DNA of 64,000 bases from Dryococelus australis (lineage: Eukaryota > Arthropoda > Insecta > Phasmatodea > Phasmatidae), in contig CM056995.1 of assembly GCA_029891345.1 (NCBI GenBank), positions 218,826,275 to 218,890,274 of the forward strand, given 5' to 3'. Below the pieces are notes generated by a model. The model made no database searches and was not told the DNA's origin. It was given only the letters and a program-made list of their open reading frames with translations. A program made the translations under genes and the position numbers. Positions within the stretch are counted from its first letter, which is position 1. Each line of letters opens with the position of its first letter. Of this stretch, positions 1-42,083 are shown piece after piece.

Positions 1-408
1 GTAACTGATGGAGGTATCAGTATTGTTACTCGAAACGAGACTAGGGGTAATGGAATTATCGGTAATATTGAAGAGGTTATAAGGAAAACAACTACACTGA
101 CAATAAAAGAAACAGTTTCTGATGCAAATTATGTTTCCTCGTGGTTTATCGACAGTTTTGGTCCTGACATGTTGTCGAAAATGGAAGAATATAAAAAGAT
201 GACCGAAAAAATTGTAGAAATTTTTCAAGAGGTGAATAGTGATGCTACAAATAAAACAACTCTCTATTTTGATCGCATAAAAAATGAAGCAATTGTTCAA
301 AGTGTGTGTTTGGTTCTTTGGGGCACAAGTCTAGGTATGTGCATGGCACTCTTAAAATGTGCATTTAAAAAATGTGCTCGAAGGAGAAGAATGTCTTCAT
401 TTGGTTAA
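1..408 (+). CDS. C-terminal end of a membrane glycoprotein-like protein (partial)
   Basis: The frame is open from the left edge of the window and ends at TAA 406-408, giving 135 residues without interruption. The last 40 residues hold one hydrophobic segment (around VCLVLWGTSLGMCMALL) followed by a short tail rich in K and R, the layout of a type I membrane protein with a cytoplasmic tail. Several N-x-T/S sequons lie before it. I infer a viral envelope protein from this layout and from the viral genes downstream. No family is recognised, and the N-terminus lies outside the window. Confidence 0.5.
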   Translation, partial: VTDGGISIVTRNETRGNGIIGNIEEVIRKTTTLTIKETVSDANYVSSWFIDSFGPDMLSKMEEYKKMTEKIVEIFQEVNSDATNKTTLYFDRIKNEAIVQSVCLVLWGTSLGMCMALLKCAFKKCARRRRMSSFG

Positions 409-539
409 CAATCACACTTGTAGATAGTGTACTTAAAAAAACACAAATAGGTCTATATATTATTTAAAAAAAACTTATTTGCATATAAATTACAAAAAAA
501 ATACACACACATAAATAAATTACAAAAGTTTTTTTTTTT

Positions 540-1500
540 TCACATCTGTTGTTCTATATCTTTTAGATTTATACACAATGCAGTGAGCTCAAACTTAAAA
601 TACTGCACATTACTGCTGTGTAGATGACGAAAAATAGCAAATACTGTTGGGATTTCATCCTGGCATTTACATAGCTTTTCTAAACTGGCAGGATCCATGA
701 TTCAAAAATTACAATTTTGTTCTGGGGTAGCAGGAAGGGAGATCTTTGTTTTAGTTCAATCATCTGGTCGACACGTTCCATGTTTTCTTCTTCCACAGTG
801 GAAAAAGTGTATTGTATCACCTTATCTGAGATCAAGTACCACGAATTGAAACTTCCCCTACTACTATATTCGCGAACAATCTTTTTCAGTAAATTGCCAT
901 CTATCATGAAAAATACATATTTCCTTAACAGTTCGTTTCCAACAAACGGAATTTGAGAGCTTATATTTATCTCGTCGTCATTGTTCAAATTGAAGAGGTT
1001 ATTATTTGAACCAAGTAGGTTAAATATCTGAAGGTATTTTGCCAACAGTTGGATAAAGTTGGTAATTTCATCATTTTTGGAGCGATAGTTACGCGCGTTC
1101 ACCTTTATTTGATTGTTGCAATAAAACTTGAAGTAGTTGCCATCAATTTCACCCAACATTGAAACAAACTTTACTTCGGAATTATCTATGACAATGCATG
1201 GTAGACATGTTTTGTTCTCGACCCGTTGATATTTCACAGCTGGTTTCCCCTCTGGTTGCTGGTTGATTGGTGCTTGACTAAATGATTCACTGTCTTGAGC
1301 TTCTTCGTCATCGTCACAACATTCGTAATTTTTTCACTTGACTGAGTTGCGATCTTCCGCCATGAGATTAGTGAAAGTATTAGCGCTATTGTCGAGTTGA
1401 CATGGCTGTGGTTCGGGCTGCTGCTGTTGTTGTTCAGTAGTTTTACTAGGGGGTATCCATCTTGCCGAGTTTCTTCTGAGCGACTGGTAAAGTAACAACA
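540..1500 (-). pseudogene. unrecognised viral gene with a polyQ segment, broken
   Basis: A minus-strand frame starts with a basic stretch and a run of five glutamines near 1,430 and passes an internal ATG at 1361-1363. It meets an in-frame TGA at 1334-1336, then continues through an acidic stretch (ECCDDDEEAQDSE) and 185 further residues to a stop at about 680. A second frame overlaps this end and adds about 52 coherent residues to TGA 540-542, so one frameshift near 690 is likely. The full gene would be about 300 codons. No family is recognised. The coherent sequence on both sides of each break is the evidence for a decayed gene. Confidence 0.45.
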
Positions 1501-1760
1501 ATTAACTTCCTCTTTTATAGCTGCAATTTCTAAAAAAAAAAGATTTTTTTAACTTAATTAATTAATTAAATTATTTCAATAATTTTCTATTTTTATTTTT
1601 TATGCATTCATTTTAATATTTTTTGTTCTCTTTTTTACTTTTGTTTCAATATTTTTTCTAAAGCCAACGGACTATAGTTATTAGTCGCAAGTAAAATTGA
1701 ACATTCACATGAATTTTTTGCAGAGTCCTTAATTGTGTCGAAAGAGCAAGGTATTTTAAA

Positions 1761-2700
1761 TTACTTGTACAAAGAATTATCAGTATTTGGGTTTATATAC
1801 GTGTGTGCTATACTGAATGCAAATTGGGCTCCTTGTATGGTCGGGTCACTTCCAGCCCATTTCGAAACACATTTCGTACATGGAAGTTTGGGGTCGGAAT
1901 TCAAGTATAAAATTTGCGGGCCACATTCACAATTACCGGTGGAGTAATCGGGCATCACGTTTTCTGGTGCATTGAATATCATCGTAACATATTTATTTGG
2001 CATGTACTTGAACCACAATCCATTATTCAATGGAATCAATCGATTTTTTAAAGTGTCTGATTGCTCAGTACACGCGATCTGGTAATCTCCATCATCCAAC
2101 TTTTCGTCTACATCATCTATCCTAAACGTGTGGCTACCATAATGGTGTATGTTGTATTAGTCACTCTATCCACTATCGACCCATTACAACCAACAATCAG
2201 GTTGGAACCAATCCCTCCAAACAAGTACAGATAGCGTGGAAGGCAAATGTATTTGTCATCCACGTAAATGATTTTACCCAGATGGGGATTACAAGCGGCT
2301 GCTTCCAAAGTCATACAGTAGGGACCTCGATACAATATGTGATTGATGACTGTTTCGGTCGGTAAAAACTTGTATTCGAATTCACCATTGTTGTCGTTAC
2401 TAATCGAGGTGCAAGATACCGGCTCGTTTTCCTCGCCCTGGTAATGGCCGAATGGGCTTTTATTTTGTAGAAATGACTCGTCATTTTCTCCGTCATCTAC
2501 ACTCACATTCTCCTTCAACACAACGGTCAGTAGTTTTTCGAAACCAGTCAACCCATGTATGTAATTCATACCAGATTCTAGGTATTTTTGCTAGAAATTG
2601 GATCACCTGTACACCAACAATATGCAACGGAAACTTGAACAATGAATAGTACAAAAGCAAATAAAAAAATTATAAATACCGATTCATCTTTTCTTTGCAT
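1761..2700 (-). pseudogene. cysteine-rich PIF-like (PIF-2 type?) envelope protein, broken
   Basis: The start ATG is at 2698-2700. The first 25 residues contain a strong hydrophobic anchor (VFIIFLFAFVLFIVQVSVA) followed at once by CWC, the N-terminal layout of per os infectivity factors PIF-1, -2 and -3. An in-frame TAG follows near 2,590, then a frameshift leads to a 150-codon frame (2569-2117) and a 112-codon frame (2099-1761). The body is cysteine-rich, with CNPHLGKIIYVDDKYICLP, IVGCNGS and GNCECGPQ...PCTKC. Total length is about 313 codons. The family assignment is inferred from layout and cysteine pattern only, and PIF-1 or PIF-3 would also fit. Confidence 0.35.
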
Positions 2701-2789
2701 GATTTTGCAGAAAGCTTATGATTATATTATCATTTCTTCTCCAATTGCAAACATTTTTCCTTTTCAAACTAAACTTCTTTTGTCAATCA

Positions 2790-3185
2790 TATGATTTCAT
2801 CATCCTGTCATTCACAATCGTTTTTCGTTTCCTCTGCCGACATGTTGTTGCCAGTTTTGTCAATGGTTGGTAGAATCTGGCATAATACCCAATCTTTAAA
2901 ATCTTTTCCTGTCGACAATCACGATTTCATAATCAAATTATATAAGCCTATTTTGTGATGAAAACGGTTCTCAAATTTCCATGATAGCTTCGATGATGGT
3001 AAACAATTTGATTCTACGAGTTGTCTGTACTTTGTTCGTTCATATAAGGGAATGTGTCTCCGAACGGCATCGCAAGTATTCCTGTATTCCAAAATTTTTG
3101 CCACATCCTTTCCTCGAAACCACTGCTTATTATCCTTGTCTAAAAGAAACAAAAAAATTTTTATGATTGTATATGATGATGAATT
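2790..3185 (-). pseudogene. BRO-N domain protein fragment
   Basis: The minus-strand frame at 3152-2919 begins LLDKDNKQWFRGKDVAKILE, the typical opening of a BRO-N domain (W-F-x-G-K-D-V-A). It continues through GLYNLIMKS, then an in-frame stop, then a stretch matching the usual domain end (DWVLCQILPTIDKTG) down to about 2,840. BRO proteins are DNA-binding proteins common in baculoviruses and other insect viruses. No clear start codon is seen: the frame runs upstream into the foldback repeat at 3,178, which may have displaced the N-terminus. A C-terminal domain is not recognisable. Confidence 0.65.
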
Positions 3186-3405
3186 TTACGATACATGGCG
3201 AGGCACCTCGGGATTTGGATCTTCTTCATCACCACCGCTACGATCACCACCATTACCTATACCGACACAAACCATCAAAGTGAATCCTGCAGTCCATCGA
3301 GAAGAACCCACACACACACACATATATGATGGTAGTGGTGGTGATGAAGAAGATCCAAATCCCGAGGTGCCTCGCCATGTATTGTAAAATTCATCATCAT
3401 TTTCA
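3178..3405. repeat. foldback inverted repeat, about 65-base arms
   Basis: The left arm begins GATGATGAATTTTACGATAC at about 3,178 and runs to about 3,243. The right arm ends at about 3,404 and is its reverse complement with only about two mismatches. The spacer of roughly 90 bases contains a short CA microsatellite. The arms are so similar that both strands carry mirror-image open frames, which explains two opposed short ORFs here. It lies directly upstream of the BRO-N remnant and looks like an inserted foldback element. Confidence 0.8.
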
Positions 3406-3464
3406 TCTGTTGGTACAAACGTTACTATCATGTGTGGCATTATGAATAGTTGAGCTATATGAGA

Positions 3465-4039
3465 TCATTTCTCGGCTTTGAATGTTGAATTTTCTCGATT
3501 TTCCAGCTGCACAAAGATATCTCCTTTGTAGTCTGAATATATAATTTCAATATAGGCATATATTCGATGGTTGAATGCCATGATAGATCCATCTGCGAGA
3601 ACGGTCGAATGATCATCATGGTTTTCTAGCTTTTCTGTTTTACTCGATTTTTTTCTATGGAGCCGCATCTTTCAAAGATTTTTTTCTTTTTTGTTTTCAG
3701 GAACCATTTTCCTCACTGCTATAGTGGGCCTAGGTTGGAATCTTCTGGTGATGATGGTTGGGTTGTTGATGGCAACGACCCCTTATCTTTTTTTACAGGA
3801 TGTTATCATTTGTAATTAGTTTTTGATTTTTTATGGGTTTGCCAGTGACTGCAGTTGGGACTTGATCCTCTCTATCCTTTTTCTCCACAGCAGCCTCCAT
3901 AGTCGATATTGGCTCTGTCGTCTCTGATGTGGTAGCCGTCGTCTCTTTCAACACTGCAATCTTTACCATTTCCAGAAACAGGTTTCGTAAAACATTGGTC
4001 CACTTTAATGACTTTCTGTTATAGGTTATCGAGATCCAT
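3465..4039 (-). pseudogene. unrecognised viral gene, threonine/glutamate-rich middle, broken
   Basis: An ATG at 4037-4039 opens a frame with an early TAA. After a shift near 3,970 there are about 60 coherent residues with a T/E-rich stretch (KETTATTSETTEPISTMEAA), then further stops, and finally a clean 67-residue frame at 3668-3465. I treat these as one gene because they are collinear and overlap by only a few bases, but the last frame could be separate. No family is recognised. Confidence 0.35.
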
Positions 4040-4249
4040 TTTGACAGATAACTAATATTTGGAGTTTCTCATTGCATGTTTTCTTATACACAAGTATGTA
4101 TAGAAAAAAAACTTTTTCTCAACTTTTTTGTTTTCACCTTTTTTTGCCCCTTCATAGAAAGGAAGGAATGTTATCATTGTGTTTTAGGTACAATGTGTCA
4201 TAGGTGCTGGTGGTGGGAATCCCATCATGATTGGTCGTCAACTTGGTCA

Positions 4250-4561
4250 ATTCTCAATGGAGTATGGAATCGGCTGGCATCCTTTCGACAAGATGGATGT
4301 TCGGGTAAAGAAATTGGGGTTTTGTCATAAAGATGAGTGAACAAATTGTATTTTCGCTTTGTTGATTTTCAAATAGGGTGTTTACCAATTCCTCTTCGTG
4401 AAGGAGTAGATTTAAGTAGTGCTCAAATTCCCTGTTTTAGCATGAGTATGAAATCTGGGGCAGATCAGAGTAATCGTCCCTCATCTCGAAATTGGCTGTT
4501 TTATTGATGTGTAGGTAAAAAGTTTCAACATTTCGAGGTTAATTCGTTCTGTGTCATGCAT
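4250..4561 (-). pseudogene. small unrecognised viral gene, broken
   Basis: A minus-strand frame starts at ATG 4559-4561 (MHDTERINLEMLKLF). It shifts once near 4,490 and then runs about 80 residues with one TAA inside a sequence rich in E, L and N (HYLNLLLHEEELVNTLFENQ), ending near 4,255. The plus-strand frame over the same stretch looks like an antisense shadow. No family is recognised. Confidence 0.35.
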
Positions 4562-4615
4562 GTCGCTGTCAAAATGAACAAACATGATTATGGATTTTTA
4601 TATCTTGGAAAATAA

Positions 4616-5058
4616 CTATATCGAATCGAAATGACAGTGGGTGATGTAGGGTGTTAAACATCTATACAAAACACCCGAATAGTAAAACAAACTCTTGTTT
4701 AGTATCAGGGTTCGAGATGTGTGCAGAGAGAGTAGAATTTCAAAGGTTGATTCGTTAATGTAATTACACAAATAATAATGTGTTCTGTGCTAATCTGACT
4801 CGAGTTCCGCAAAATTGCAGTAGACAAACTCAACGCCCAAGTAATCATCGAAAATTGTATCCAGCGGAGAGGGGGGGGGGGGGAGTATATCGATGTATTT
4901 TGAAATTGCAATTTCACTAAAAACAAGAGGGATTCTCTTTGTACAATTTCTGACAAGTGAGCCAACAACAACGTGATTTTGTCTTCCTCGTTTTTATCGA
5001 TGCATAAATTTGTATATATACAAACATTGTCCATAAATAAGTTATTACAAAAGAACAC
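4616..5058 (-). pseudogene. unrecognised viral gene split at a poly-C (minus strand) tract
   Basis: The 117-residue frame at 5058-4705 reads well until SIYSPPPP, where the DNA has a run of 13 G on the plus strand (4871-4883). Past the run another frame reads well (DTIFDDYLGVEFVYCNFAEL), crosses one TAG and ends at the stop 4616-4618. A length change in the homopolymer is the simplest explanation of the frameshift. The whole gene would be about 147 codons. No family is recognised. Confidence 0.4.
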
Positions 5059-5193
5059 ACCTATGTAAAAAGTATTAATGATGCAGGAATGCTGTACATA
5101 AACAAATTATTGTTTGATTACATAACCATCAAACCTGCAGAGAATAAATTTAACAACTTGGTTGTGTGTTTTGGGCCTTGATACTACATTGGA

Positions 5194-5740
5194 ATGGACA
5201 ATTTCGAAGAGTGTTTAAAATTTTTGGGTGCAAAACACATTTTAAATGACTTGTATTGTGATAATCAAGTGACGGAGTTCCAGATAGTATCGGAACACTC
5301 TAATAAAGTGGCAAAATGACTCGATGTACTCTACATAACAAAAGGCATAAACATTGGCTACAAAACTAAATTCATCAACTACTTTGAACTACACCGCTGG
5401 TTTTGTCCATGGAAAAACACAAGTCCACCACTACAAAATTTGTACTTGTAGCTGCAATTAAACTTCTATCATCAATATTACATTTCAAAAAAGTTTTACC
5501 GAGAGATATTTCCGAGCTGATCATGCAAAAAATCGAACCCTACCTCATGAGCATTTGAGATCTGGGACGAAAAGAGAAACTCGCGGAAAATGTAGACATT
5601 GTGTTTGTGCTCAATCATGAGAGATCTGTTTCCCACGTGTCATCAAATATCGCCACAATGGCTTTTGAAAGCGAACAAAATTACTCTCCTTCCAAGTGCG
5701 ATTGTAGATATCGTTTTTGCCAAGATGACGCCAATCGGTA
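5194..5740 (+). pseudogene. unrecognised viral gene, broken
   Basis: Starting at ATG 5194-5196 the frame reads MDNFEECLKFLGAKHILND, has TGA near 5,318, and continues coherently to about 5,430. A second frame then carries a leucine- and lysine-rich stretch (KVLPRDISELIMQKIEPYL) with two stops to about 5,740. This makes about 180 codons if joined. No family is recognised. Confidence 0.35.
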
Positions 5741-5844
5741 ACTGCGGTAATGTTTTATAGAAAAATAATAATTTCTATAAAAAATGGATTAGTATCGAAA
5801 TAACCCATTTTTGTGTGTTGTTATTGAAATTACTGCTCCCCCAC

Positions 5845-6090
5845 TCATACATTCAACAACCAATCAAGTTGCAGTATTCCACCTCAACTCTTCCCCTTGT
5901 TTCAGTTTAGCCTATATGGCCATGAAAGCTCGAAAAAAAGACGCCAGTCTAAGGCGAGAGCTGTATGTGGAAATATCACTCCTCCTCCCAGAGCAGAAAA
6001 GGAATACAGAGATTGAAAAAAGGGAAGGGAGGGGAAGTGGAATACTGCAATGTGATTGGTTGCTGGAAGTAGATAAGGGGTTGGAGGAAT
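5845..6090. repeat. inverted-repeat element, family A copy 1
   Basis: The left arm contains CAACAACCAATCAAGTTGCA near 5,858. The right arm ends with the complementary AATGTGATTGGTTGCTG near 6,064. Inside the arms are polypyrimidine/polypurine stretches (CTTCCCC / GGGGAAG). The same arm sequence recurs in both orientations at 22,905-23,375. The element carries no obvious gene and resembles a non-autonomous foldback or MITE-like element. About 300 bases further right (6,180-6,340) hold no gene. Confidence 0.65.
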
Positions 6091-6329
6091 GTCGATCGTG
6101 AGCCCTCTTGCGAAATTTCGTGGGAAATCGAATTTTAAAGGGAGAATTTGCAGGGCTTAAACCCTCAATGTCCATTTAAACTAACCCTATTACAATGTTG
6201 GTTTGTAATGAAAGTGTTATTTGGCCAGGCTGAAGGTGGTTGGGGGGAGAGGTTAAGGGGCGTCAGATGAACTTTTTATTTATAATTAATATAAAATATT
6301 GAATTTTGGCATTATTTCAGTTTTGGGGA

Positions 6330-6600
6330 CCCAAAATTGAATTTTGGAGAGGGAACAAATCCGGCAACTCCCTTCAAAATTCAACGACATTCTCATCCAT
6401 TTATTTTTTACACAATCTAAAATTACTTTACATGAGTTTTTATATCCAATAAATTATGCTATAACTTTGCCCTTGAATCAAAATTGTTCGATTCCATTAT
6501 GGTCGACCGGTATGAAAATCCAATAGTTGAAACTTGGGGATGTTTGACAGTGGAAAAGACTGTTCAACAAACGACATTGTGAGTGACAAGCAAAAAAATG
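6330..6600 (-). pseudogene. BRO-N domain remnant (tandem copy 1)
   Basis: Read on the minus strand this stretch contains a degenerate BRO-N start (NHNGIEQF, stop, FKGKVIA) with several stops. At DNA level it matches the copies at 7,380-7,600 and 7,795-8,010, for example around CAAAATTGTTCGATTCCATT at 6,480. It appears to be a truncated duplicate of the neighbouring BRO gene. Confidence 0.55.
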
Positions 6601-6717
6601 ATGTAACTTTTTTTGATAATTATTAATTTTTAATGCTTTATTTTTTTATTTTACACAGATTACAGTTTATTCAAGACTTTTGGTGATGTGATTATGTTAC
6701 GTACAAACAATATAACA

Positions 6718-7583
6718 TTACTCTGAGTCCATGGTGTCCAAAATGTGCACAATATTATTACGGGCAGAATTCAGCATTTTTGATTCCTTCAGCCAATCTT
6801 TCACACAATTCAAAATGTTCACGCTATTTGGGATGTACCCAATCCTGTACAGTTCCCTGGCATTTGGATTTTTGTTGTTGAGCCATTTCAGAGATTTGGC
6901 GAGCGATCGACATTGGCATCGGGTGAAGGCTATTTCTCGGTTTGTTTCTTCCTGCATGTGCATGGTCAACGTGTGTAATAAACTATCAGATTTGGGTTTA
7001 ACGATTACATCTTGTCAATTTTGGTGATGCGATGAAAAAGCACCATGGCATCTTGTCTAGCTTTTTCGGCATCTCGTCTAGCTTTTTCAGAATATTGTCT
7101 GGGAAGTATCAATTCTTCATTGGTTAATATAAATGATTTCATCACCTCGAGTAAGCTGTGGTTCACATCTTTTAACGATTCATCTTTTTTAGTCATATCA
7201 ATCTTGTATTGACCATTCTTTCTCGAGGAAGGTAGCACATCTTCATAGACCCAATCAGTGAACCTTTCAGCCTCTGGTAATTTTGAATGTTTTACCAGAG
7301 TAATAGGACAGGCTCAGAGGTGAAGATGCTATGTGATTGCCAGTTGGATGGAATGTCAATGATATATTGAGATGCACCCTTTAATTTTGCCCATGTTTTT
7401 TTTCCAATTTGGTTCGATAAATTTTGAAATTGCTTTACATGGGTTATTGTACTTAAGAAACAATCCAATATCTTTACCTTTGAACCAAAATTGTTCGATT
7501 CCATTATGGTTGATCATCAGGAAAATCCAACAGTTGACATTCTCGAAATTTGATAACGAAAAAGACCACTCAACGAATGACAT
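6718..7583 (-). pseudogene. bro: BRO family DNA-binding protein, nearly full length but broken
   Basis: The start ATG is at 7581-7583, 25 bases from a TATATATA element. Residues 1-70 include GIEQFWFKGKDIGLFLKYNN, the BRO-N core. After frameshifts between 7,290 and 7,390 the end of the domain is visible (ERFTDWVYEDVLPSSRKNGQ) in the frame running into 7238-7005. A coiled-coil-like stretch follows (EKARRDAEKARQDAM) and then a C-terminal part (6969-6718) with a BRO-C-like character. The expected total is about 288 codons, ordinary for BRO proteins. Such genes often occur in multiple copies in insect DNA viruses. Confidence 0.7.
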
Positions 7584-7605
7584 TGTGAATGAAATGATGT
7601 CAGTT

Positions 7606-7620
7606 GCTTATATATAGACT
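7606..7620 (-). promoter_or_regulatory. TATA-type promoter of the BRO gene
   Basis: The minus strand reads CTATATATAAG here, about 25 bases upstream of the BRO ATG at 7,583. A similar TATATATATAAG lies near 8,021-8,034 upstream of the next BRO-N copy, so promoter and coding start were duplicated together. Confidence 0.45.
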
Positions 7621-7794
7621 AAATATAATAGTATCTAATATTTTTTGTGATTATTTTTGTTCTATAATAAATGTTAACTTTTATTAATAATAAATATAAA
7701 AATTGAATTTTAATGGGAAGAACTTTTCGTGTACACCCAAATTGAATTTTGGAAAGATCCCCTTCTTATAGTGAAGGTGTTAGTTGGAGTGAAT

Positions 7795-8010
7795 GTCAAA
7801 AATACCTTTCAAATTCGACCTCGTTCTCATCCATTTATTTTATACACTGTCTAAAATTACTTTACATGAGTTCCTTTATCCAATAAATTATGCTATAACT
7901 TTTCCCTTCGAACAAAAATTGTTCGATTCAGCATGAAAATCCAGCATTAGAAACTTTGGAAGCTTGGCAGTAGAAAATACCACTTGACCAACGATGCTGT
8001 GAGCGAAATG
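7795..8010 (-). pseudogene. BRO-N domain remnant (tandem copy 3)
   Basis: The minus strand contains IEQFLFEGKSYSIIYWI, a degenerate form of the BRO-N core, with stops on both sides. The DNA aligns with the copies at 6,330 and 7,380, including the conserved words TTACTTTACATGAGTT and CAATAAATTATGCTATAACTT. Flanking sequence around 8,100-8,260 also resembles that at 6,180-6,340 (shared GGTTAAGGGG...GTCAGATAAGCTTT-like and CCCAAATTGAATTTTG words). Confidence 0.55.
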
Positions 8011-8247
8011 ATGATCGATTACTTATATATATATTTATTATTACATAAACTATATAGTTTATGTAATAATAAATAAAAAATTGAATTTGTGTAAGAACCC
8101 TCACCCATAATCTTCCTTCAAAGTAACCTGCGATATTGTTTAATAGTGAAGGTGATAATTGGGGGTTAAGGGGAGTCAGATAAGCTTTATGTGGAAAATA
8201 TAAAAAAATCGAATTTTAAAAGGAGGGACTTTTAATGCAAACCCAAA

Positions 8248-9049
8248 TTGAATTTTGTTGCAGAGAATTTCTCCATCTTGCCACTCCAATCCATGGAAAC
8301 TTTTCATCAGTTAGCCCACGGATGTGGAGATTTGACCTGCAGCAATCCAGTCGAACTATCTCTTCTGTTGGGAACCCGCACCAAAAACTTTAAATGTAAA
8401 GTCTTTGATACATCTTATTTCAATTTCGTTGTTGTTTTTGGAAATCTTCCCATTTTGCCATTACATTATTGCGGAACCACAAATGCAATAATTTCGAATT
8501 TCTATCTGAACACACAAATCCACGAACGTGTCTCCAATAATCATAATGGCCTGCATTCCCATATATAGTTACCAGAGTCTTAAATTATGGGCATTTGTAA
8601 GTTATGCAAAGCCACATTTCGAGATAGTGATCGAATTTGCACAACTTCTTTAGCCATAGTATTTGATATGATCCCACAACAAATATTATAAACTTATTGT
8701 AATGGCTCCTTATCAATTGAAGTATTTCCCTTTCAATTTTGCCATAGGGAATTTCGCCATCTTGAAATGCCAATTGGTGAATATTTTCCTTCAGCCAATA
8801 GTTTGTCTCTTTACTTACATCATCCAATGCTTTCCACGGATATGGAGATTTGAAGAGCCGCCTTTTGGTGAAACCATCAATGTTGGTGATTGCCAGTTCC
8901 TTCAGCGCATGTTCGCCATTGTTACCACGGAAACATTGCAGATTGCAAAACATGTTGTATGTTGATACTTGAGAGTGTATCAAGTGCTGGCTCGAAAGTG
9001 CGTGATTTGGCTTGGCCGATACCATCGTATCATGACCCACCGTGGTCAT
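8248..9049 (-). pseudogene. unrecognised protein with an internal repeat, broken
   Basis: The frame at 9049-8585 is clean for 154 residues. It contains KALDDVSKETNYWLKENIHQ and LAFQDGEIPYGKIE in the middle, and its C-terminal third is aromatic-rich. Downstream, at 8,250-8,580, the minus strand holds a degraded second version of the same unit (KDFTFKVFGAGSQQ and LEWQDGEIL) with several stops. This is consistent with a tandem duplication of a domain or gene. The function is unknown. Its position beside the BRO array suggests it belongs to a multigene virus family. Confidence 0.4.
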
Positions 9050-9160
9050 GATATGTTTTTTTTAAAATACCTCTTCGGATGTCTTGCATAACTAACTGAA
9101 AAAAAAGTTTCCTTGAAAAAAAACAATGACATAATATCATTCATCATTTATTTTTCCAAC

Positions 9161-9568
9161 ATGAAATATATATATGAAAACTATTCCGATGTTGCTGTTA
9201 GTAATGCTTTGGACGATTGGGAATCATTTTGCAAGACTGAGTCAAAAGTTAACTCCATCGAATCTAGATTTTATGATAGCGACCAACAGAATACCGAATT
9301 TCTATTGGTGAAACACCGCCCAGTCAATTTTCTAAGCATGAACTTTCTACGACATTGTTTCGTCAGCATAAATAACCGCGAATGGCATCCCGGTACTCAC
9401 GAAGTTAACCAAATTTTTGTCGATTCTTCCGATGCGTATTGTGTTGTGATGGAAATTAAGGAATTTTGCAAGTTTTGCACATCGCATTACTTTAAAAATT
9501 TGTTTGAACAAGATAAAGTTTTCAATTATTTTATCAGCAACTGTGAATTAATAGTTGATTATTATTAG
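9161..9568 (+). CDS. intact unrecognised viral protein
   Basis: From ATG 9161 the frame encodes 135 residues to TAG 9566-9568 without interruption, in a region where most genes are broken. An upstream extension to 9,113 adds 16 hydrophobic residues that could be a weak signal but are probably leader sequence. The protein contains NREWHPGTHEVNQIFVD, a cluster CKFC in its second half, and no membrane segment. No family is recognised. The intactness may be chance, recent decay of neighbours, or retention. Confidence 0.5.
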   Translation: MKYIYENYSDVAVSNALDDWESFCKTESKVNSIESRFYDSDQQNTEFLLVKHRPVNFLSMNFLRHCFVSINNREWHPGTHEVNQIFVDSSDAYCVVMEIKEFCKFCTSHYFKNLFEQDKVFNYFISNCELIVDYY

Positions 9569-10550: not shown

Positions 10551-10554
10551 TGGG

Positions 10555-31360: not shown

Positions 31361-31364
31361 ATAT

Positions 31365-31416
<52 letters not shown>
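31361..31416. repeat. TA dinucleotide tract before the P74 start
   Basis: About 55 bases of nearly pure TA repeat end directly at the ATG of the P74 gene (31,417). Both strands give long tyrosine/isoleucine frames that are artefacts. The tract may have grown by slippage from a TATA promoter. Confidence 0.8.
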
Positions 31417-33514: not shown

Positions 33515-33529
33515 ATTGAGAGACTTTCT

Positions 33530-33950
33530 TAATCGTCAGTTCTTCGTCCGAAGGTAGATGTAACAAGTCATAGAGTTTATCAGGTGAGTACTTTGTGTGA
33601 TGTAAATATCGATCCTTGGCTAATTCGAAAATCTCGCGAACTGTGTTCACATATACCTTTTTAGTTTTTTTTATATAGCTTTCTTAATGAAGGTAAAGAA
33701 ATATCCATCTTATTTGCACGATAAACCATTTTTCGTCAGCCTATCGATGAAAAGGGCAATTGATTCATTGTCATCCTTATTTCCGACTTTGTTATGAGTC
33801 ATTCTGGTCGACTCTGCGATAGTGTTGACATTAATTTTCGTAGCCAACAGGAGCGCTTTGATGTGTTTCTTTACTTACACCAACTACAAGTTTGCTACAA
33901 CACTCTGAATACCACACTATGTATACCAAGAGAGAAAAAAAAATTTAAAG
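33530..33950 (-). pseudogene. unrecognised viral protein fragment, broken
   Basis: On the minus strand a coherent stretch (KKHIKALLLATKINVNTIAE, MTHNKVGNKDDNESIALFID) runs from about 33,870 to 33,700. After TAA and a shift it continues as VNTVREIFELAKDRYLHHTK and KLYDLLHLPSDEELTIKKVS to the stop near 33,510. This makes about 130 codons. Convergent with P74. No family is recognised. Confidence 0.4.
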
Positions 33951-34299
33951 ATTATTTTTTTATTATATTTTTTCAATAATGATGCATAAAAGAATGCAAT
34001 ATATTTTTAAAAATATTAATATTATTATGATTTTTATAATCGTCGTTATCTGTGTTATTTGCATAGACACGATAGTCATGAGGGTCGGCATAATCATACA
34101 TTTTAAAAAAATTTGCCAATCGAAGGTGTTTTATAAATTTTCGTTTCCCAATTGCAGCTTCTCTTTGTGTCCATCTTAAGTGTTTAAAGTAGCAGTAGCA
34201 GTTTTAGTTTTCAAAACATTTGCATTTTCAATCAAATTGTTAAAAAGTATAACTTTTTTCAGCAGCTGCTAATATCTCGGCAGCCGCCATGTCTTACTG

Positions 34300-34933
34300 T
34301 TATTGAGTGCCTTCGAGCACAACACAACTTACGACCTCATCAAAAAGGTCAAAATTACTGTTTTCTTTCACCCGAAAATTGTTTTTGAAGTAAAAGGTGT
34401 TATTTGTAATACCTAAAATATCTTTTAAATCTATGTTGTTTTCATGAAAGTATAATATTATGTATAGCGGGTGGCCGTAAAGTTTTTTTCCCCCCAGGTT
34501 GATGGATAAAAATTTTGTAGGAAGATTGTCTACATACTTTATATGGGGTGCTAAAATACCCTTTTTACCCGAATTTTCTATTTGAGTTTCCTCTTCTATT
34601 ATTCGTACTAGATTTATTTCTTTCAAATTAAAATATACTTTCTGGCGAATATTTTTATTGCTGTATTTCGATTTAGAAAAAAACACGCACTGTAGAATTG
34701 TTATATTTTGCACAAATATTTACCCAAAGAATTCCTAAAGGTGGTTCATATTCCTCAGACTCCCAACGTATAACCACAATGTATGGTATATCATCAACGA
34801 CATTACAGTTGGGAAAGGGATTGAAGGAATTGTAACAAACACACATCTGACTCGTTTTTGGCGCCCTGATCAACTCTTGGTTGAATGTGTCGAGATTACT
34901 TGTTGCATATAAATTCGAAGGATATTTGATCAT
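34300..34933 (-). pseudogene. unrecognised viral protein, one frameshift
   Basis: The frame 34933-34673 (ATG 34,933) and the frame 34713-34300 overlap by about 40 bases and join into one protein of about 211 codons with a single shift near 34,685. The first part has several cysteines (MCVCYNSFNPFPNC) and an E/P-rich stretch. The second has KKLYGHPLYIILYFHENNID. About 110 bases between this stop and 34,190 show no gene. Confidence 0.45.
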
Positions 34934-34962
34934 ATATTACGTGGTTAAAATAGTATATCCTT

Positions 34963-35385
34963 TTAAACGCGCGAGCCTATCGTACCGCAAAATTTTGCAT
35001 GCGAAATAGAAATAACATTTTCACCAATAGTTAGTATGGGTTTCCTTGTCGAATCCACATACACCATAATTTTATAATTTATACCATGACAACCATTGAT
35101 GTAAATGCTATCTGAACTATTTCCTCTCTCAATATCTTTAATTATTTTACTCGAACTAGATACCAATAAAAAATTCAACATTTTATTATAATGATGGATT
35201 TCATCGTAATATGCATTTAATTTATATTTCTTCAGATCGGCAATGCTGGCAATTACAACCTTGTTATAGAAAGCAGTTGGATAATTTTTCATAAATTTCA
35301 ATATGGTATTGAAGGAAGCTATCGAAATTTCATGTATAAAGTAAATTATAATAGTTAGTATTTCATTGTCCAAATTTGAATTTAG
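34963..35385 (-). CDS. unrecognised viral protein, largely intact
   Basis: The frame is clean for 136 codons from 35,373 to 34,963 and can be extended slightly upstream (SQLNSNLDN). It contains a hydrophobic start (EILTIIIYFIHEISI) and a C-terminal part with CHGINYKIMVYVDSTRKPIL. It may be its own gene or the end of the large gene at 35,390-38,207. No family is recognised. Confidence 0.4.
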   Translation of the reverse strand, partial: LNSNLDNEILTIIIYFIHEISIASFNTILKFMKNYPTAFYNKVVIASIADLKKYKLNAYYDEIHHYNKMLNFLLVSSSSKIIKDIERGNSSDSIYINGCHGINYKIMVYVDSTRKPILTIGENVISISHAKFCGTIGSRV

Positions 35386-35389
35386 CTGC

Positions 35390-38207
35390 GAATTAAACTA
35401 GTTCTAACTTTGTTGATCTCCACAAAATAAATATGCCACATCCCCACGGTTATTGTTATGTGTATTTGGGGTATTAGACTTGAACAACTCGCAAATCTCT
35501 TCGATAAATTGTAAATTATCTACATACGATTCAGCAGTAAATTTCAAGGTTTTGCTATCTAAAACCAATTTGCCCTCTTCGGACGTGCCAGAGTTTTTGT
35601 GAAATAAAATTTTTGTGTTTGCACCATCCTCAAATTACAAACAATCGTTTAGAACTTCGAAGGAAGCATTTGAAATGATGACGACGCTCCTTTGAATATT
35701 TCCAACGACTTGGAAACCGTTATTTTCGTTAAATAAATTGGTTAGATCTTTTTTTTGAAAACGATACCGCTATCTCCCGTAAATGAATCGATAATCTTCA
35801 CCACTAGTGTGTATTTTCCATCAGGCATGGCTTCTAAGTACTTGCTCAAATAATACACATCAGATAAAAATTGCTTTGAATAGTACTATTCGATGAAAAT
35901 ATTGTTCGTGATTGTCATGCGTGTTGTTAATGTTTATTTTCCCCCGATTTTTATCCTCGTAAATGGCAGAAATCCCTGGAATACCAACAAAGGATGAGAG
36001 GTTTACGACATAATGTCAACCATCAATCGCACTCTACATATATTCAGCATTTGATGGAAATTGTTCGTTCACCGAAGGTTTATATAAAGATGCCATGACC
36101 ATAAAATCATTGTTGGCATTCGCATATTTTTTAGGGTTTTCAGTAATGACAAATCGTAGTGTTTTATTATTCGACCTGGTCGTTTGGACAATCGCTTCGT
36201 TTTTGTTTCTGTCGTAGAGCAGGGATGTGTTTAGATCTCCTATACAAATGTATTGATACATGGAACTATTGGCTGTGGTGCGCATTTTATACGAAACACC
36301 GGTAAGTTGTATATTTAGTTGATTTTCCTGAAAATTATCGTTTAGCCTAGCCATCATAACAAAAATGGGCGTGTATTTGGTCCATCGGCTTTTAAATGTG
36401 GCCAAATTCATCACCAAAACGCGGACAAATTGTTTGGAAACATTGCGAAAAAGATGACAATTAGAGAACGCGTAAGTGTCGCAAAGTAATTGATTAACCC
36501 ATCATTCGAGTTTAACGAATTTCGCATTTTATTGATAGCTAATACATGAACTTTCCTACGATCCACCAACATTAAATCCTGATTGTTTACTATGTGCTAG
36601 TTCAAATCGACTGGTGAATAAACAGCTTCCCTCGAGGATTCAAACACCCCCGCTTGAATATTTTGCTCTTAGTTATTTGGTTCTAACGAAAATATAACAT
36701 TAGCTGTACTTACATCCAAAGCCAAAATTTTTGACTTGTTTAAAATTAATTTGGAAAAACCAGTTACTAATGTATTAGTAAAAGGAGCGGAGGAAGAAGA
36801 GGAGGGCGAGGATGACGGGTAGGAAAACTGGAAACTTTGATCATCGTTTAGTCGCTTAGAAACCGACATATTTTTTGGATGGCATATCATAAAATAATGT
36901 GTGTTTGAAAGAACAAATATTTCGTGCTGATATTGCGCATTTGAAATGTATTTTTTGATCCTGGATTGTCCATAAGAGATGCTGAATTGTTTTCGACTTG
37001 AAACAAAAAGGTAATGTTGTACTTGTTGATCAATTCCATCGCCTCTCCTATTAAAAACTCTGAAGCAGATCGAATGATTGCAAAATACTGGTATTTATTA
37101 GGATTCATATCTGTATATTCAATTTCGTCATTCACCATGATAGTTTTTGTATTTGATATTCGATTGTAATTTTGAAATTTCAAAGAAGAATCTACAGTAT
37201 AACTACGAGAGGGATAAATGTACGAATAGTTTCCAGATGGAACATAAACAATGATGTGTTCTTCTTTTAACCTATCGAGAACAGGAATTTGAGCCACGTT
37301 GAATGCTAGTGATGTAGAACTATCGATCACTTCTTTGACCAAATCGTTATCTGGTGTCACAACTACATTATTCTTTAAGTTATTTGGCACGACGAAAATG
37401 AAATTATTTTGTTGCTTGAAATACTCGCCGGGAAGGTTTATCAAATTAGTATCGGATTTATAAAACTGAGACGCGTATTTGAAAAATAACAAGTGCTTAT
37501 TTGAAAGGTGTAAGTTATTAATGATTTGTGCTGCCAACCAATCATTGTTTTTATCGAGAACGGAAATTAACAATTTTCCCAATTCATTATTGTGTTGTAA
37601 GTGAATCTTTTTATCCGTGTCTCAAACGTTTTCGCCACAGTTGCTTTGTTAGTAAATTTTATGATATTTGGTGTTCGAATTTTACCCTTGATATATGATT
37701 TGACTGCCGCCGTAGTTTGAGCATCCAACCCGTAGGTAAAATCACTATCGATTTGGCTGATGGTGGACATCAATCGTTGTCAAGTGACCACGTTTTTAAA
37801 TTTAATAATCGAATTATTTGCGTTCGTGTAGTTCATCACGAAAACTATGTATCCATCAAAATCGTATTTTACACATTTACCCGATTTAGAGACAACATCC
37901 TGCATCAAACTGGTTAAATATACACTCTCACGAGGTTGTAAGTTTTTCGCAAATATCGCGAATCCTTCTGTATATAAATTATCCGGAAGTTTTCCCTCAA
38001 ATTTTGAAAAAAAGTATAGTCATTCAATGATGGTAAATTTTGTAAACTGTATATAAAGTTTTTATAATCGGTTAATTTTATCATGTTAATAAGAAAAAAA
38101 TGTTTCGAATATTCATTTGTTAGACTTTCTGACATTGTAAAAGGCCCTTTTTTTAAATTGGCACCACCTAAATTGTTATTTTTTTGGAAACTCTGCGAAC
38201 TTCCCAT
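35390..38207 (-). pseudogene. large N-myristoylated-type virion protein candidate, broken
   Basis: The start is MGSSQSF at 38,205-38,207, a good N-myristoylation signal (M-G-x-x-x-S). Collinear minus-strand frames follow: 38207-37914, a stretch with DFDGYIVFVMNYTNANNSII, 37773-37567, 37582-36887 (231 clean residues), 36890-36669 with a serine run, 36417-36034 and a final part to 35,400. Frames change at about 37,920, 37,575, 36,890, 36,420 and 35,750. Read as one gene it has about 930 codons, but two adjacent genes are possible, the second from about 36,890. Size and myristoylation suggest a tegument or capsid-associated protein. No family is recognised. Confidence 0.4.
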
Positions 38208-38570
38208 ATTTTAATATAGAGTCTTATATGCCAAAAAAATACATTGCCTTCTTTTTTGCAACACATAGCCCTTTTATTTACACTATACCGAACTAAAAAA
38301 AATATTGGTTTGAATTTTGATGGATAAAAAAATGTACTATAAAACGTTCAGTTTGTAAGTAACTTTGTTTATTATACCGGTATCATCCACGGTGAAAGGT
38401 TTAAAATATCACAATGGTAATCTTTATTTTTTGGCTGTTCCTTGAAAATCTTCTAAGCAAACATACAAATTTATTTCACGGATCAATACCTTTGGAAAAA
38501 TCGTCAAGCATAAATTACGAGAGAAGCATGGCCTTCCAGATAAACGAGACTGGAGTGTTGTTTTAGAGAT

Positions 38571-40165
38571 TTGTTGAGTAGTAATGAAATGTGTTTATGG
38601 GCGCAACAAATTCCACGTGAAAATCCCGAGGACAAGTTAATTACCGTTATATATTCATCGAATTCCGAACCGAAAGCTGTGGAAACCACGACAAATTTTA
38701 TGTCGGCAAAGTTAACTCTTTCAATGGCACAAGAACTTGTTAAAACAACTTTATTTACATGGCTCGATGAGAATGATGGTGAGTTGGCTACACTTAAATA
38801 CATAATGTTAAATGGTCCTGCCGGCAGTGGGAAATCTACAATATTTCTTTTTTTTTTCTCGAAGAAAAATATACAGAGTTTTTTACACGACCCCGCAACA
38901 CTTTCTACTGCGAAATATTTGTCGACAGATGAAACTAGCAAATGATTTAACATTATCGAGTCTCCTAATTCGGTTGATTAAATTTAGTTACTATGAGTAT
39001 TTGAAATTCATGCAGTTCTGGCCACTGATTGATCTTGACAAAATATCTACAGTGGTACAAGAATTGACCAAGTTTTGCGATATCGGATACAACATGGCTT
39101 AGTTTTTTTGTGGAATGCAACAACGACTATTCAATTTCCTTCGACGCATGCATTGTTTTATTTGTTGACGAATACAGTATGATCAGAGCATGTCTAGCAA
39201 AATTTATAGTTGAACTTTTCGAAATGGTGAAGCACACTTTTAGTAAATTATTGATTTATTTTGTAGCGATCAGTATCAGCTAAAGCCGTTTGTGACAAAC
39301 AAACCCAATGACATATCGCTTATTCGTGAACTATGCGGTGATAATTTTTTCGTTACCACACAGTTTAGGAACATGGATTCGACATACCAGGAATTTCTGA
39401 CAACTTTAAATACTGCTCCGAATTGGAAGAAACTACTTACACGTCATTTCGGCGTACACAATTGTAACGTGAGTTGTTTCACTCTGGATTTTGAGTGTCT
39501 GATAGAGTTGTTGGCAACTCTGCTTGAGCCGAAAATTAAAATGGCTTCACGTTTGGTACTCAACGCAATTTCAGTTTAAGTGTGTCGATTGCTGTTCTCG
39601 CTCAAATAAAAAAATTTCTAAAGGAATGTAGCTGCCGACTTGACGTGACTGAGCTGGACAAACAGAGTATTTTCAAAAATCGGCCCCGGTTCACTTCGAT
39701 TTTCTTTTTAAACGATAAAAAAACATTGATAACAGAGAAGAATGAAAATCTCAAACCCGCCTACTTGCCGCTAATCGTTGGTGTTCCCTACTGCAGTTTA
39801 ATTAATGGTCATGGAGTATGCTTCGGTGAAGTTTTGTATTATTTGGGACATGTTGGAGACGAAATACTCATGTGTGACAAGAAAAAAAACAACCTCTTTC
39901 TGATACTAAAATGTTTTTTCAAGATGAATCTCTATACGATATATAAATTTGCCTTTCAGCATGCATGTGAAGCTACTAAAAACAGTAAACTCTTGTTATA
40001 TGGTTTCCCAATTCAAATGACGTATGAAAATTCAGTCAGAGTAGTATAGGATTAACAATTGATAATGACATTTATGCAAATTTGATGGGATGTATGCTAG
40101 ATGAAATTTATGTAGTCTTATCCAGAACAACAAACAAGAGTAAATTGAAATTTATTCAAGTGTAA
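38571..40165 (+). pseudogene. Pif1-like SF1 DNA helicase (nudivirus helicase-2 type), broken
   Basis: Motifs appear in order: Walker A NGPAGSGKST (38,811-38,840), Walker B with VDEYSM (39,164-39,181), motif III DQYQLKPF (39,268-39,291), a glutamine/arginine motif FFVTTQFRNMDSTYQEFL (about 39,350-39,400), and near the end GLTIDND plus YVVLSRTT (about 40,050-40,130), the typical Pif1 motif V/VI. Frames change at a T-run near 38,850, around 39,100-39,265 and near 39,580, and a short stop cluster interrupts 40,048-40,060. The gene is about 530 codons. A Pif1-type second helicase occurs in nudiviruses and relatives, in addition to the main replicative helicase. Confidence 0.7.
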
Positions 40166-40321
40166 ATATTTTTTTGTTACTAATGTAAATACATCAATGA
40201 ATAAAAAAAATATTTTTTTCCTAACCTGTTGTGATTTTCTGTCTTTATCCATTTTTTTATCCTCCTTTTTCCAACCCTATGTGAAATATTTTTTTTGCAT
40301 ATTGTACTTGTATATAATACA

Positions 40322-40504
40322 ATGAATAAAAAAGAGCAAATATACGCATTTACCATTATAGGATCTATTTTATTAATTTGATTTTTAGGGTTTGTTTTAT
40401 AGAAATTTAAAAGTAAAATCAAAGGCTCGGTGAATACACAATTTGGTGCGAGTACATCTTTCGGAGGTGCTGCTAATTCAGGAGATGCAGCTGCCGGTAA
40501 TTAA
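40322..40504 (+). pseudogene. small single-pass membrane protein, two in-frame stops
   Basis: ATG 40,322 to TAA 40,504 gives 61 codons with one membrane segment (IYAFTIIGSILLI) interrupted by TGA and then TAG. The tail is a glycine/alanine/serine-rich stretch (FGASTSFGGAANSGDAAAGN). It starts a run of four plus-strand genes. Small G/A-rich membrane proteins occur in virions, but no family is recognised. Confidence 0.4.
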
Positions 40505-40522
40505 GTAAATTAGTATTACACA

Positions 40523-40750
40523 ATGAAAAAACCAATAATACCTTGTGATTTTATCTTTGCGATTAAAGAGTTGCTAAAGTTGAAGGCATGGAGAAAATTA
40601 AATAAAAACATGACGCATTCTGTATTTATGGAATCGGTTTAATTTATAGAACTAAATCCGCCGCTGTACTTGGATTTTTTACATCTGACAGTCATAATAA
40701 ATTTCTAGTATTTTTACGATTCCGTATTGAGGTTAAAAGGCGTTAATGAC
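40523..40750 (+). pseudogene. small unrecognised viral protein, broken
   Basis: ATG 40,523 opens MKKPIIPCDFIFAIKELLKL. A shift near 40,622 gives GIGLIYRTKSAAVLGFFTSD and a basic end (RFRIEVKRR) to TAA near 40,745. About 74 codons in all. It overlaps the start of the next gene by a few bases. Confidence 0.35.
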
Positions 40751-41396
40751 TGAACATGATAAACTTGCTTCTGAAATAAAATTTAAAATTTCGCAATTAA
40801 CCCACCGTTTAAATTTTCTATATCTTAAGTAGTGTACTATCCAACAAAATTTTTTGGACCCGCACATCACTCGCGAAAGTTATAACATATTTTTGAGAGA
40901 CGAGCAACATGCAGAAGATGATAATATTAAACAGTTGACGAAATTACTATACAAAGATAATTCCCTATCATTTCAAATTGAGGAGTTTAAGAATAAAGTT
41001 GGTTCTGTACAAGTACGAAAAAATATTCAATCGCTCGAAAAAAATTTATTTATTTTCAAATTACCACGAAAACGTATTGGCTGATGTAGAGACATTATGG
41101 GAGGGTGTTGCAAAGACAAACGATCCTCAAAAAATACATAAATCTATGAACATATTATCGATACCTTGAGTTATTCTCAAATTTTAGAAATAATGTCTGT
41201 ATTCCTCACTTACCTGTCAGTAAAATACTACGAAAACGCCATTCAAACATCGGTGTGGCAAGTATTTTATGGTTTACCCACAATTATTTACGATCCGAGC
41301 TCGGTCGTCATGACACCCGATGGACAGTTATATAACCGACAATCGCTCTATGTAATTTTGAGTTTTTTTTACTATCGTTTGCCAATATATAGATAA
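40746..41396 (+). pseudogene. unrecognised viral protein, broken
   Basis: From ATG 40,746 (MTEHDKLASEIKFKISQL) the frame crosses TAG near 40,830 and continues to 41,084. A +1 frame carries NVLADVETLWEGVAKTNDPQ, and the original frame resumes with LSYSQILEIMSVFLTYLSVK to 41,396. Two opposite shifts thus restore the frame over about 217 codons. The body is charged and probably helical and the end is hydrophobic. No family is recognised. Confidence 0.45.
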
Positions 41397-41398
41397 CT

Positions 41399-42083
41399 AT
41401 GAATAAAGGAAATAAACAACTCTATGTGGGATTTGGTCTACTCATAGTTAGTTTAATTATTGTAATTCCATTCGGTATATACATTTGGAAAAAAACACCA
41501 CAATTTTGACACCTCTGTAATAGAATTGGACGAGGAGGGTAGTGGGCTGGAAAGAAAAAACTACATCTCCACCACGACCGCATGATTTTACAAATACCAA
41601 CGAATCTAGTTTAACCGACGCAAAAATAGCATATATACAGTCATCAATAATCAAGCCCGGAGAGGCGAATATGATTCGTTTTAAAACGGCAAAGAGATAC
41701 ACTATGAATATTCCCAGAGGTGTATTTACTCGGCTAAAATTTAAGAATTTAAAAAGTTAAATTTCGGAGTATTTAATGCAATTTCCCTCCTTTTGGACGA
41801 ACATTCGCAAACTATATTCACGGTTCGTCAAAACGATAATGAAGATGGCCAAGTCAAGGGTTCGTTGGATGTCAATGAAATAAATTACAAAACTTTACTC
41901 GACCAACCACTAATTTACACTCAATTTTACATTGAATGGACTTTTGAAAATGGAATCGAATTAGTTTACGGGTCCGATAACAAACGAATCGTTATTGTAT
42001 CTCCCGAAGCATCCAGAAACCTCAAAGTGTTTTCAATCAGTTTCGTCACTAATGCGAAAACTATTTTGAAATTTGAAAAGTAA
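41399..42083 (+). pseudogene. N-terminally anchored viral envelope protein candidate, broken
   Basis: ATG 41,399 opens MNKGNKQLYVG followed by a strong membrane segment (LLIVSLIIVIPFGIYIW). Shifts near 41,507 and 41,560 lead to the frame 41,542-41,760, and a further shift to 41,793-42,083, which is clean and beta-rich (YTQFYIEWTFENGIELVYGS). About 228 codons. A signal anchor plus an ectodomain without cysteines fits an occlusion-derived virion envelope protein. This is the last gene I attribute to the virus. Confidence 0.45.

What the first reader, a model, noticed from the sequence alone, without database searches (positions are those of the whole stretch)
1..42083. About 42 kb of endogenous naldavirus-like DNA in an animal genome
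P74, ODV-E66, LEF-4 and a Pif1-type helicase lie within 22 kb on both strands, interleaved with dozens of unrecognised, collinear, broken viral-type genes. The established core sets of nudiviruses and relatives contain these families. Almost every gene is disrupted, while flanking DNA carries host transposons. This supports a large, old, single insertion rather than contamination by a live virus.
Basis: partly seen in the sequence, partly recalled or inferred. Interest (0 to 1): 0.88.

Follow-up and report, generated by a model that had tools for sequence, protein, structure and literature searches.

The report
Naldavirus copies flanked by Merlin transposons

Summary
The viral DNA is real, but it is not one insertion and does not end at 42,083. 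P74, ODV-E66 and Ac81 are supported; LEF-9 and an IAP lie just upstream of the window. The genome, very probably Dryococelus australis (one scaffold length equals the published N50 to the base), has at least 145 P74 matches on 16 contigs. The window's 'ankyrin host gene' belongs to the repeated unit. Homology runs to 44,294, where a Merlin-type transposon (44,295-47,343) begins; a second one in the same direction lies about 90 kb upstream, beyond the virus's left end. Both inner virus-Merlin junctions recur in tens of scored copies; the outer flanks read differ. Of six units with both ends read, two have perfect 8-bp outer target duplications, one 6/8, three none. P74 and E66 copies differ mostly by private changes spread about evenly over codon positions (neutral decay). 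Best reading: a Lefavirales-like virus that spread as a Merlin-bounded giant element, by composite transposition or by recombination into resident Merlins; I could not separate these. LEF-4 and the Pif1-type helicase were not confirmed.

The parts
1..44294 (.). Right-hand part of the viral block of one repeated unit (the rest lies in about 45.4 kb upstream of the window, loci L014-L018)
   Evidence: DNA searches with 19152-20077, 40501-43500 and 43301-46000 each gave 40 scored copies, main matches at 79-90% identity; eight P74 loci align to about 31360-34770
1761..2156 (-). PIF2-like fragment (weak)
   Evidence: Pfam PF04631 E 1.1e-4, 21.7 bits against a cut-off of 25
9092..9568 (+). Ac81 homologue
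   Evidence: Pfam PF05820 E 5.1e-11, over cut-off
18672..20077 (-). ODV-E66 (chondroitin-lyase-like envelope protein), broken into pieces
   Evidence: PDB 3vsm E 1.7e-13 for 19463-20077; profile of 12 E66 sequences hits 3vsm at 3.4e-38; 18672-19151 alone has no Pfam family
21235..22138 (-).
   Evidence: No Pfam family at E 10; no PDB relative for 21235-21600; KLDG-like motif by eye only
28446..29383 (+). Possible LEF-8 remnant (very weak)
   Evidence: PF04941 E 0.035 for 28446-28826; none for 28799-29383; no genome-wide match at E 1e-3
32600..33514 (+). P74 (PIF0) C-terminal part, broken
   Evidence: PF04583 E 7e-9 and 9.4e-4, under cut-off; genome-search hit of 54 bits at this place
38544..39579 (+).
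   Evidence: Only sub-threshold P-loop families; no PDB relative; 39247-39579 no family
42626..43356 (+). Ankyrin-repeat ORFs, part of the unit and not host flank
   Evidence: Ank_2 E 6e-12 for 42883-43356; copies run through this stretch
44295..47343 (.). Right-hand Merlin-type DNA transposon; its right inverted repeat is the outer right end of the unit
   Evidence: Inverted ends of about 29 bp (22/29); 36 of 39 other scored copies end at query 1337-1355, i.e. 47337-47355; flanks beyond differ
45422..46065 (.). Tandem repeats inside the Merlin copy
   Evidence: TRF, periods 16-75
46131..46818 (-). Decayed transposase of the Merlin copy
   Evidence: Its own ORFs have no transposase match; the sister copy's ORF L014:6269-6688 matches DDE_Tnp_IS1595 at E 4e-4, under cut-off; L014:5468-7117 is 83% identical to 45673-47341

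Best explanation
The window holds the right half of one decayed copy of a ~93-kb unit: Merlin-type transposon - large Lefavirales-like naldavirus block - Merlin-type transposon, the two Merlins in the same direction. Units of this build are dispersed in the genome and look as if they came from one burst. Shown: the dispersed copies, the recurring inner junctions, different outer flanks, perfect outer 8-bp duplications in two of six units, mutation without codon preference since. Inferred: the virus moved as a giant element by means of the Merlin ends. Either transposase acted on the two outermost inverted repeats (composite transposition), or circular virus DNA carrying a Merlin recombined into Merlins already in the genome. 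The two leave the same trace.
For: 145 P74 matches at E<=1e-3 (150 of 380 candidates scored; 0 in 14 control genomes). 15 of 40 scored E66 sites have a listed P74 match on the opposite strand within 20 kb, 12 of them at 11.5-14.5 kb as in the window (by eye). Inner right junction crossed in 39 of 40 scored copies, inner left in 38 of 40, the window's own included both times. Outer right end sharp in 36 of 39 others. 6 of 20 right Merlin ends abut the virus's left end. In 5 copies chosen for prediction, the outer left Merlin end was found in 5 of 5, the right in 4 of 5. Outer 8-mers: 8/8 at C1:206.57 and C17:236.84, 6/8 at C1:237.12; mismatched-pair control 0 of 110 at 7 or more, 1 of 110 at 6. 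9 of 39 left ends pair with one of 68 right sites 49.7-78.7 kb away in the right orientation, against 1 control pair. Private changes by codon position 106/107/111 and 103/106/121.
Against: Three of six units with both ends read show no target duplication (5/8 and A-rich, 2/8, 1/8), the window's own among them. The transposase match is under Pfam's cut-off. The inner junctions show no 8-bp duplication (1/8 in the window's unit; 2/8 with the commoner forms, by eye). Outer-left, inner-left and standalone Merlins form one star, so their sequence does not tell composite transposition from recombination. Copies were taken as best matches of capped lists, which favours complete and little-diverged ones. 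In E66 the third codon position differs more overall (0.089/0.088/0.115 pairwise), so part of the differences predates insertion.
Confidence: 0.66

Rival explanations
1. Homologous recombination: circular virus DNA carrying one Merlin crossed into Merlin copies already in the host genome, giving direct Merlin repeats around a linear virus. If the virus's own Merlin had jumped first, it would have seeded its own landing sites.
For: Same-direction Merlins at both ends; six standalone Merlins with full or near 8-bp duplications, as diverged as the virus-linked ones; naldaviruses have circular genomes (recalled).
Against: Also predicts an outer duplication in every unit, seen in 2-3 of 6; no duplication at the inner junctions, so a plain Merlin insertion into a circle is not the origin.
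Confidence: 0.35
2. Many independent germline integrations of an infecting virus by random end joining, with Merlin as a passenger inside the viral genome.
For: Private changes dominate, as expected of many separate insertions; 2 of 40 scored copies start beyond the Merlin (C17:192065776, C17:270633042).
Against: Random breaks of a circle would give ends all around the map; here the same two ends recur and some have target duplications.
Confidence: 0.08
3. One old insertion multiplied by segmental duplication of host DNA.
For: A second, inverted partial copy of the viral block lies near the window (L021-L023 against L015-L017).
Against: The outer flanks read differ among copies and two have their own perfect target duplication; P74 matches lie on 16 contigs.
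Confidence: 0.03
4. Assembly artefact or contamination by a live virus.
For: None found.
Against: 145 P74 matches across 16 contigs, several over 100 Mb; the 9 and 8 copies compared are each differently mutated; the published assembly used long reads (PMC10268593, abstract and passages seen).
Confidence: 0.01

Closest known systems
Endogenous nimaviruses of crustaceans as giant transposable elements (PMC10871703; abstract, passages and discussion seen)
   Same: Naldaviricetes-type virus, multi-copy (22-477 per haploid genome there), PIF genes kept, insertion tied to a recombination enzyme
   Different: Those insert into telomere repeats, 28S rDNA or (AT)n with a virus-coded tyrosine recombinase or a Ginger2-like enzyme; here two whole Merlin copies bound the virus, sites are dispersed, the host is an insect, and LEF-9 and Ac81 point to Lefavirales rather than Nimaviridae
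Teratorn of medaka, a herpesvirus fused to a piggyBac-like transposon (details recalled; named in the discussion of PMC10871703)
   Same: Large DNA virus genome that multiplies in the germline with the ends of a cut-and-paste transposon
   Different: Other virus class, other transposon superfamily; here two transposons flank the virus as in a bacterial composite transposon
Filamentoviridae and related Lefavirales (for example Microctonus hyperodae filamentous virus)
   Same: Only named relative of E66 in the profile search (37% identity); weak grouping in a tree (support 0.86-0.92); P74, Ac81, LEF-9, ODV-E66 and IAP are in the gene sets described for Lefavirales in PMC12548425 (passages and section 8 seen)
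   Different: Those are free viruses, or viral genes fixed in wasp and ant genomes; no Merlin ends in what I read
Nudivirus remnants in arthropod genomes (Cheng et al. 2020, cited in PMC10871703)
   Same: Naldavirus DNA in arthropod chromosomes, by its title
   Different: Cannot compare: paper not held and not read
Merlin DNA transposons (PMC8101967, passages seen)
   Same: 5'-GG inverted ends, 8- or 9-bp duplications, DDE_Tnp_IS1595 domain; tandem repeats in some families
   Different: Found here bounding a virus genome

Membership tests
Naldaviricetes (features as listed in PMC12548425, section 8) | pif0/P74 | tested here: met
Naldaviricetes | pif2 | tested here: inconclusive
   E 1.1e-4 but below cut-off; genome-wide search not answered
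Naldaviricetes | pif1 | tested here: inconclusive
   Genome-wide search not answered; no Pfam hit among the ORFs scanned, which are a part of all
Naldaviricetes | pif3, pif5, p33 | tested here: inconclusive
   No genome-wide search made; no Pfam hit among the ORFs scanned, which are a part of all
Naldaviricetes | Type B DNA polymerase | tested here: inconclusive
   L015:7081-7950 has an SFDIETG motif by eye; no Pfam or PDB match
Lefavirales (features as listed in PMC12548425, section 8) | lef9 | tested here: met
   L018:4965-5405, PF05094 E 2.8e-5 with the polymerase motif NADIDGD (motif recalled); 23.3 bits, under the cut-off of 27, so met by E-value only
Lefavirales | lef8 | tested here: inconclusive
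   E 0.035 in one ORF; no match genome-wide at 1e-3 in a search that rang nowhere
Lefavirales | lef4 | tested here: inconclusive
   No Pfam or PDB match
Lefavirales | ac81 | tested here: met
   E 5.1e-11
Merlin superfamily (transposon at the ends) | Inverted ends beginning 5'-GG | tested here: met
   single copies differ by mutation
Merlin superfamily (transposon at the ends) | 8- or 9-bp target duplication | tested here: met
   Six standalone copies: 2 at 8/8, 3 at 7/8, 1 at 6/8
Merlin superfamily (transposon at the ends) | DDE_Tnp_IS1595 domain | tested here: inconclusive
   E 4.2e-4, 20.8 bits against 27, broken ORF of the left copy
Composite transposon carrying the virus | Outer target duplication around the unit as a whole | tested here: inconclusive
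   2 of 6 at 8/8, 1 of 6 at 6/8, 3 of 6 none
Endogenous nimavirus type | Insertion into telomere repeat, 28S rDNA or (AT)n | tested here: not met
   Flanks beyond seven virus right ends (window, L043, L046, L048, L050, L051, L053) differ from one another and show no telomere-repeat or long (AT)n run, by eye; no search for rDNA was made

The most novel reading that the evidence does not exclude
An insect naldavirus turned itself into a giant composite transposon: two Merlin copies bound the virus genome and moved it, or supplied ready-made docking sites for it, into well over a hundred chromosomal places in one burst, a virus-transposon alliance of a kind that I did not find described.
Probability: 0.6. 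Interest if true: 0.88.

Novelty: new variant of a known kind. Interest (0 to 1): 0.8.

Why it matters
How large DNA viruses become multi-copy residents of animal genomes is an open question, stated as such for nimaviruses (PMC10871703, discussion read). Here the copies are old enough to carry private mutations, and the flanks read so far differ, so ends, target duplications and selection can be read copy by copy. It would put an insect beside crustaceans (nimaviruses) and fish (Teratorn) as a host of virus-transposon giants, with another transposon superfamily. It may also account for part of the unclassified repeats of this stick insect (inference), whose genome paper has no word beginning with 'virus' in the text held.

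Tried and rejected
Single 42-kb insertion: rejected. Ankyrin gene as host flank: rejected. Polinton as the owner of L015-L017: first guess, dropped because L015:3401-5600 recurs in 40 scored copies, some of them 6-7 kb from a Merlin-virus left junction; the polymerase there is unproven. Direct terminal repeats of the viral genome itself: replaced by the Merlin reading once the inverted ends were found. P74 protein search: none, but the query is a partial ORF and the length window excludes full-length P74. IMG/VR scans with P74 and E66: no relatives. Solved structures with partial P74: none. Rfam: nothing. LEF-8 genome-wide: nothing, uninformative. LEF-9, PIF1 and PIF2 genome-wide were asked for but did not complete.

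Prior art: searches (open-licence PMC library, listings only, cut to 25 of 6,175) listed no title or abstract that reports this element. Cheng et al. 2020 was not held, and bioRxiv is not in the library.
Full report
What the window is. It is C3:218,826,275-218,890,274 of a 3,415,067,245-base assembly in 646 contigs. One contig, C4, is 262,277,254 bases long, exactly the scaffold N50 printed for Dryococelus australis (PMC10268593; outline and passages seen). The printed assembly is 3,421,391,311 bases in 1,879 scaffolds, 17 of them large, so the held copy is slightly shorter, presumably without small scaffolds. [quoted passage not shown] The held text of that paper has no word beginning with 'virus', and 'viral' only in a reference.

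The viral genes. P74 (E 7e-9 and, under cut-off, 9e-4), ODV-E66 (PDB 3vsm, E 1.7e-13; profile of 12 sequences 3.4e-38) and Ac81 (E 5e-11) are sound. PIF2 is weak. Within 10 kb upstream of the window, L018 holds LEF-9 (E 2.8e-5, under Pfam's cut-off, with the motif NADIDGD) and an IAP with BIR (1.4e-17) and RING (4e-8) domains. LEF-4, the helicase, DNA polymerase and LEF-8 were not confirmed. A 388-residue E66 ORF of another copy found 11 relatives, the closest 71% identical and 651 residues long, none named. A profile search gave 38, the only named one from Microctonus hyperodae filamentous virus at 37%. In a tree of 36 of the 39 proteins plus that ORF (three short proteins left out), the ORF and the 71% relative are sisters (support 1.0) and group weakly with the filamentous virus (0.86-0.92).

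Not one insertion. The P74 family search found 145 matches at E<=1e-3 on 16 contigs (C1-C12, C14-C17; 150 of 380 candidates scored; none in 14 control genomes). DNA searches with four pieces of the unit had 286, 511, 1413 and 444 first-look candidates, 40 scored each (the third piece includes transposon sequence); these are not copy counts. Of the 40 scored E66 sites, 15 have a listed P74 match on the opposite strand within 20 kb (5.4-18.3 kb; 12 of them 11.5-14.5 kb; counted by eye), 25 have none listed. Eight P74 loci align with one another and with the window around 31,360-34,770 at 76-93% per aligned piece, spacers included.

Where the unit ends. 40 of 40 scored copies, the window's own included, cross 42,083, and 39 of 40 cross 44,294 (the exception, C3:264290696, begins at the transposon's left end). 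With 46,001-48,600 as query, 36 of 39 other copies stop at 47,337-47,355 and three earlier. The stretch 44,295-47,343 has inverted ends of about 29 bp (22/29) starting GGT, tandem repeats and decayed ORFs; its sister copy L014:4,558-7,119, in the same direction, has an ORF matching DDE_Tnp_IS1595 at E 4e-4. These are features of Merlin (PMC8101967, passages seen). From the outer left to the outer right end the window's unit measures 92,786 bases (from the coordinates).

Both inner junctions recur. The sequence that follows L014's Merlin also follows 6 of the 20 right Merlin ends that I read. With L014:6,950-8,900 as query, 38 of 40 scored copies, the window's own included, run from inside the Merlin into this virus-left sequence; two do not (C17:192065776, C17:270633042). 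Of the other 14 right ends, 3 belong to virus copies by position (L043, L046, L048). I fetched a left end for 10 of the remaining 11 and found it in 9: 3 have the virus's right end before them and 6 are standalone. Two are unresolved (L038, L039).

Prediction test. For five copies I predicted the outer Merlin ends from internal hits; left ends were found in 5 of 5 and right ends in 4 of 5. Later attempts: C17:236.84 both ends; C17:215.44 left only; C3:264.29 left only, C3:152.83 neither. Outer 8-mers in the six units with both ends read, by eye: C1:206.57 8/8, C17:236.84 8/8, C1:237.12 6/8, the window's unit 5/8 (A-rich), C17:207.2 2/8, C17:116.7 1/8. Standalone Merlins: 8, 8, 7, 7, 7 and 6 of 8. 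Mismatched pairs (110, without C17:236.84): none at 7 or 8, one at 6. So the whole unit can have the footprint of a single insertion, but half of those read do not.

Pairing. Of 39 left ends typed, 9 have one of 68 typed right sites 49.7-78.7 kb away in the expected orientation; the control arrangements gave 1. Units vary in length, and at least one is shortened to about 23 kb between its end markers (C17:124.966-124.989).

Age and mode. Pairwise difference averages 9.8% (P74, 9 copies) and 9.7% (E66, 8 copies). Changes private to one copy are spread nearly evenly over codon positions (106/107/111; 103/106/121). Shared variable columns are fewer and lean away from the second position in P74 and towards the third in E66 (21/9/23; 21/18/33). 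Pairwise differences by position are 0.100/0.087/0.105 and 0.089/0.088/0.115. This is what neutral decay after a burst from a working source would leave. Merlin left ends of 430 bp from outer-left (6), inner-left (4) and standalone (6) positions differ by 13-14% on average within and between the groups: one star. At insect neutral rates (recalled, about 3e-9 per site and year) this is of the order of 10-30 million years. Copies were chosen as best hits, so the figures lean low.

Mechanism. Composite transposition through the outermost Merlin ends explains same-direction Merlins, recurring inner junctions, changing flanks and outer duplications. Recombination of circular virus DNA with resident Merlins explains the same facts and uses the standalone Merlins, which are as diverged as the others; those could also be left by recombination between the two Merlins of a unit. 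Missing duplications in three of six need later rearrangement under either. I hold the Merlin-bounded unit as well supported and the choice between the two as open.

Novelty. Endogenous nimaviruses are already called giant transposable elements (PMC10871703; abstract, passages and discussion read), and Teratorn is a herpesvirus-transposon fusion (recalled). An insect Lefavirales-like virus bounded by Merlins was not found in my searches, which cover only an open-licence library and were seen as listings.

Noticed in passing
window 56000-64000: Decayed, AT-rich Polinton/Maverick-like element: integrase core (E 4e-6), adenovirus-type protease (0.05), double-jelly-roll domain (0.004), all under cut-off
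   Followed up: partly
window 49254-50081: Retrotransposon remnant with aspartyl protease (E 3e-8) in the flank right of the unit
   Followed up: no
window 54773-55384: Inverted Merlin fragment, 80% identical to 46052-46669
   Followed up: partly
L021:3207-L023:6416 (C3:218,913,481-218,936,690): Second, inverted partial copy of the viral block about 40 kb right of the window's unit, next to Polinton-like sequence
   Followed up: partly
C17:323,031,892-323,033,894: 22 overlapping rows of about 80-115 bp matching L015:3616-3727: a satellite that seems to have grown from a piece of the unit
   Followed up: no
L014:8099 (query 1150): Many other copies have roughly 350-400 extra bases here that the window's copy lacks
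   Followed up: no
C17:192,065,776: A copy whose match begins exactly where the Merlin's right end would stop, with no Merlin matched before it, and with E66 and P74 much nearer the left end than in the window
   Followed up: no
PMC10268593, genome size and annotation sections: Longest RepeatMasker stretch printed as 42,143 bases, and unclassified families with non-transposon protein hits were removed; virus-like families may have been dropped there (inference)
   Followed up: no
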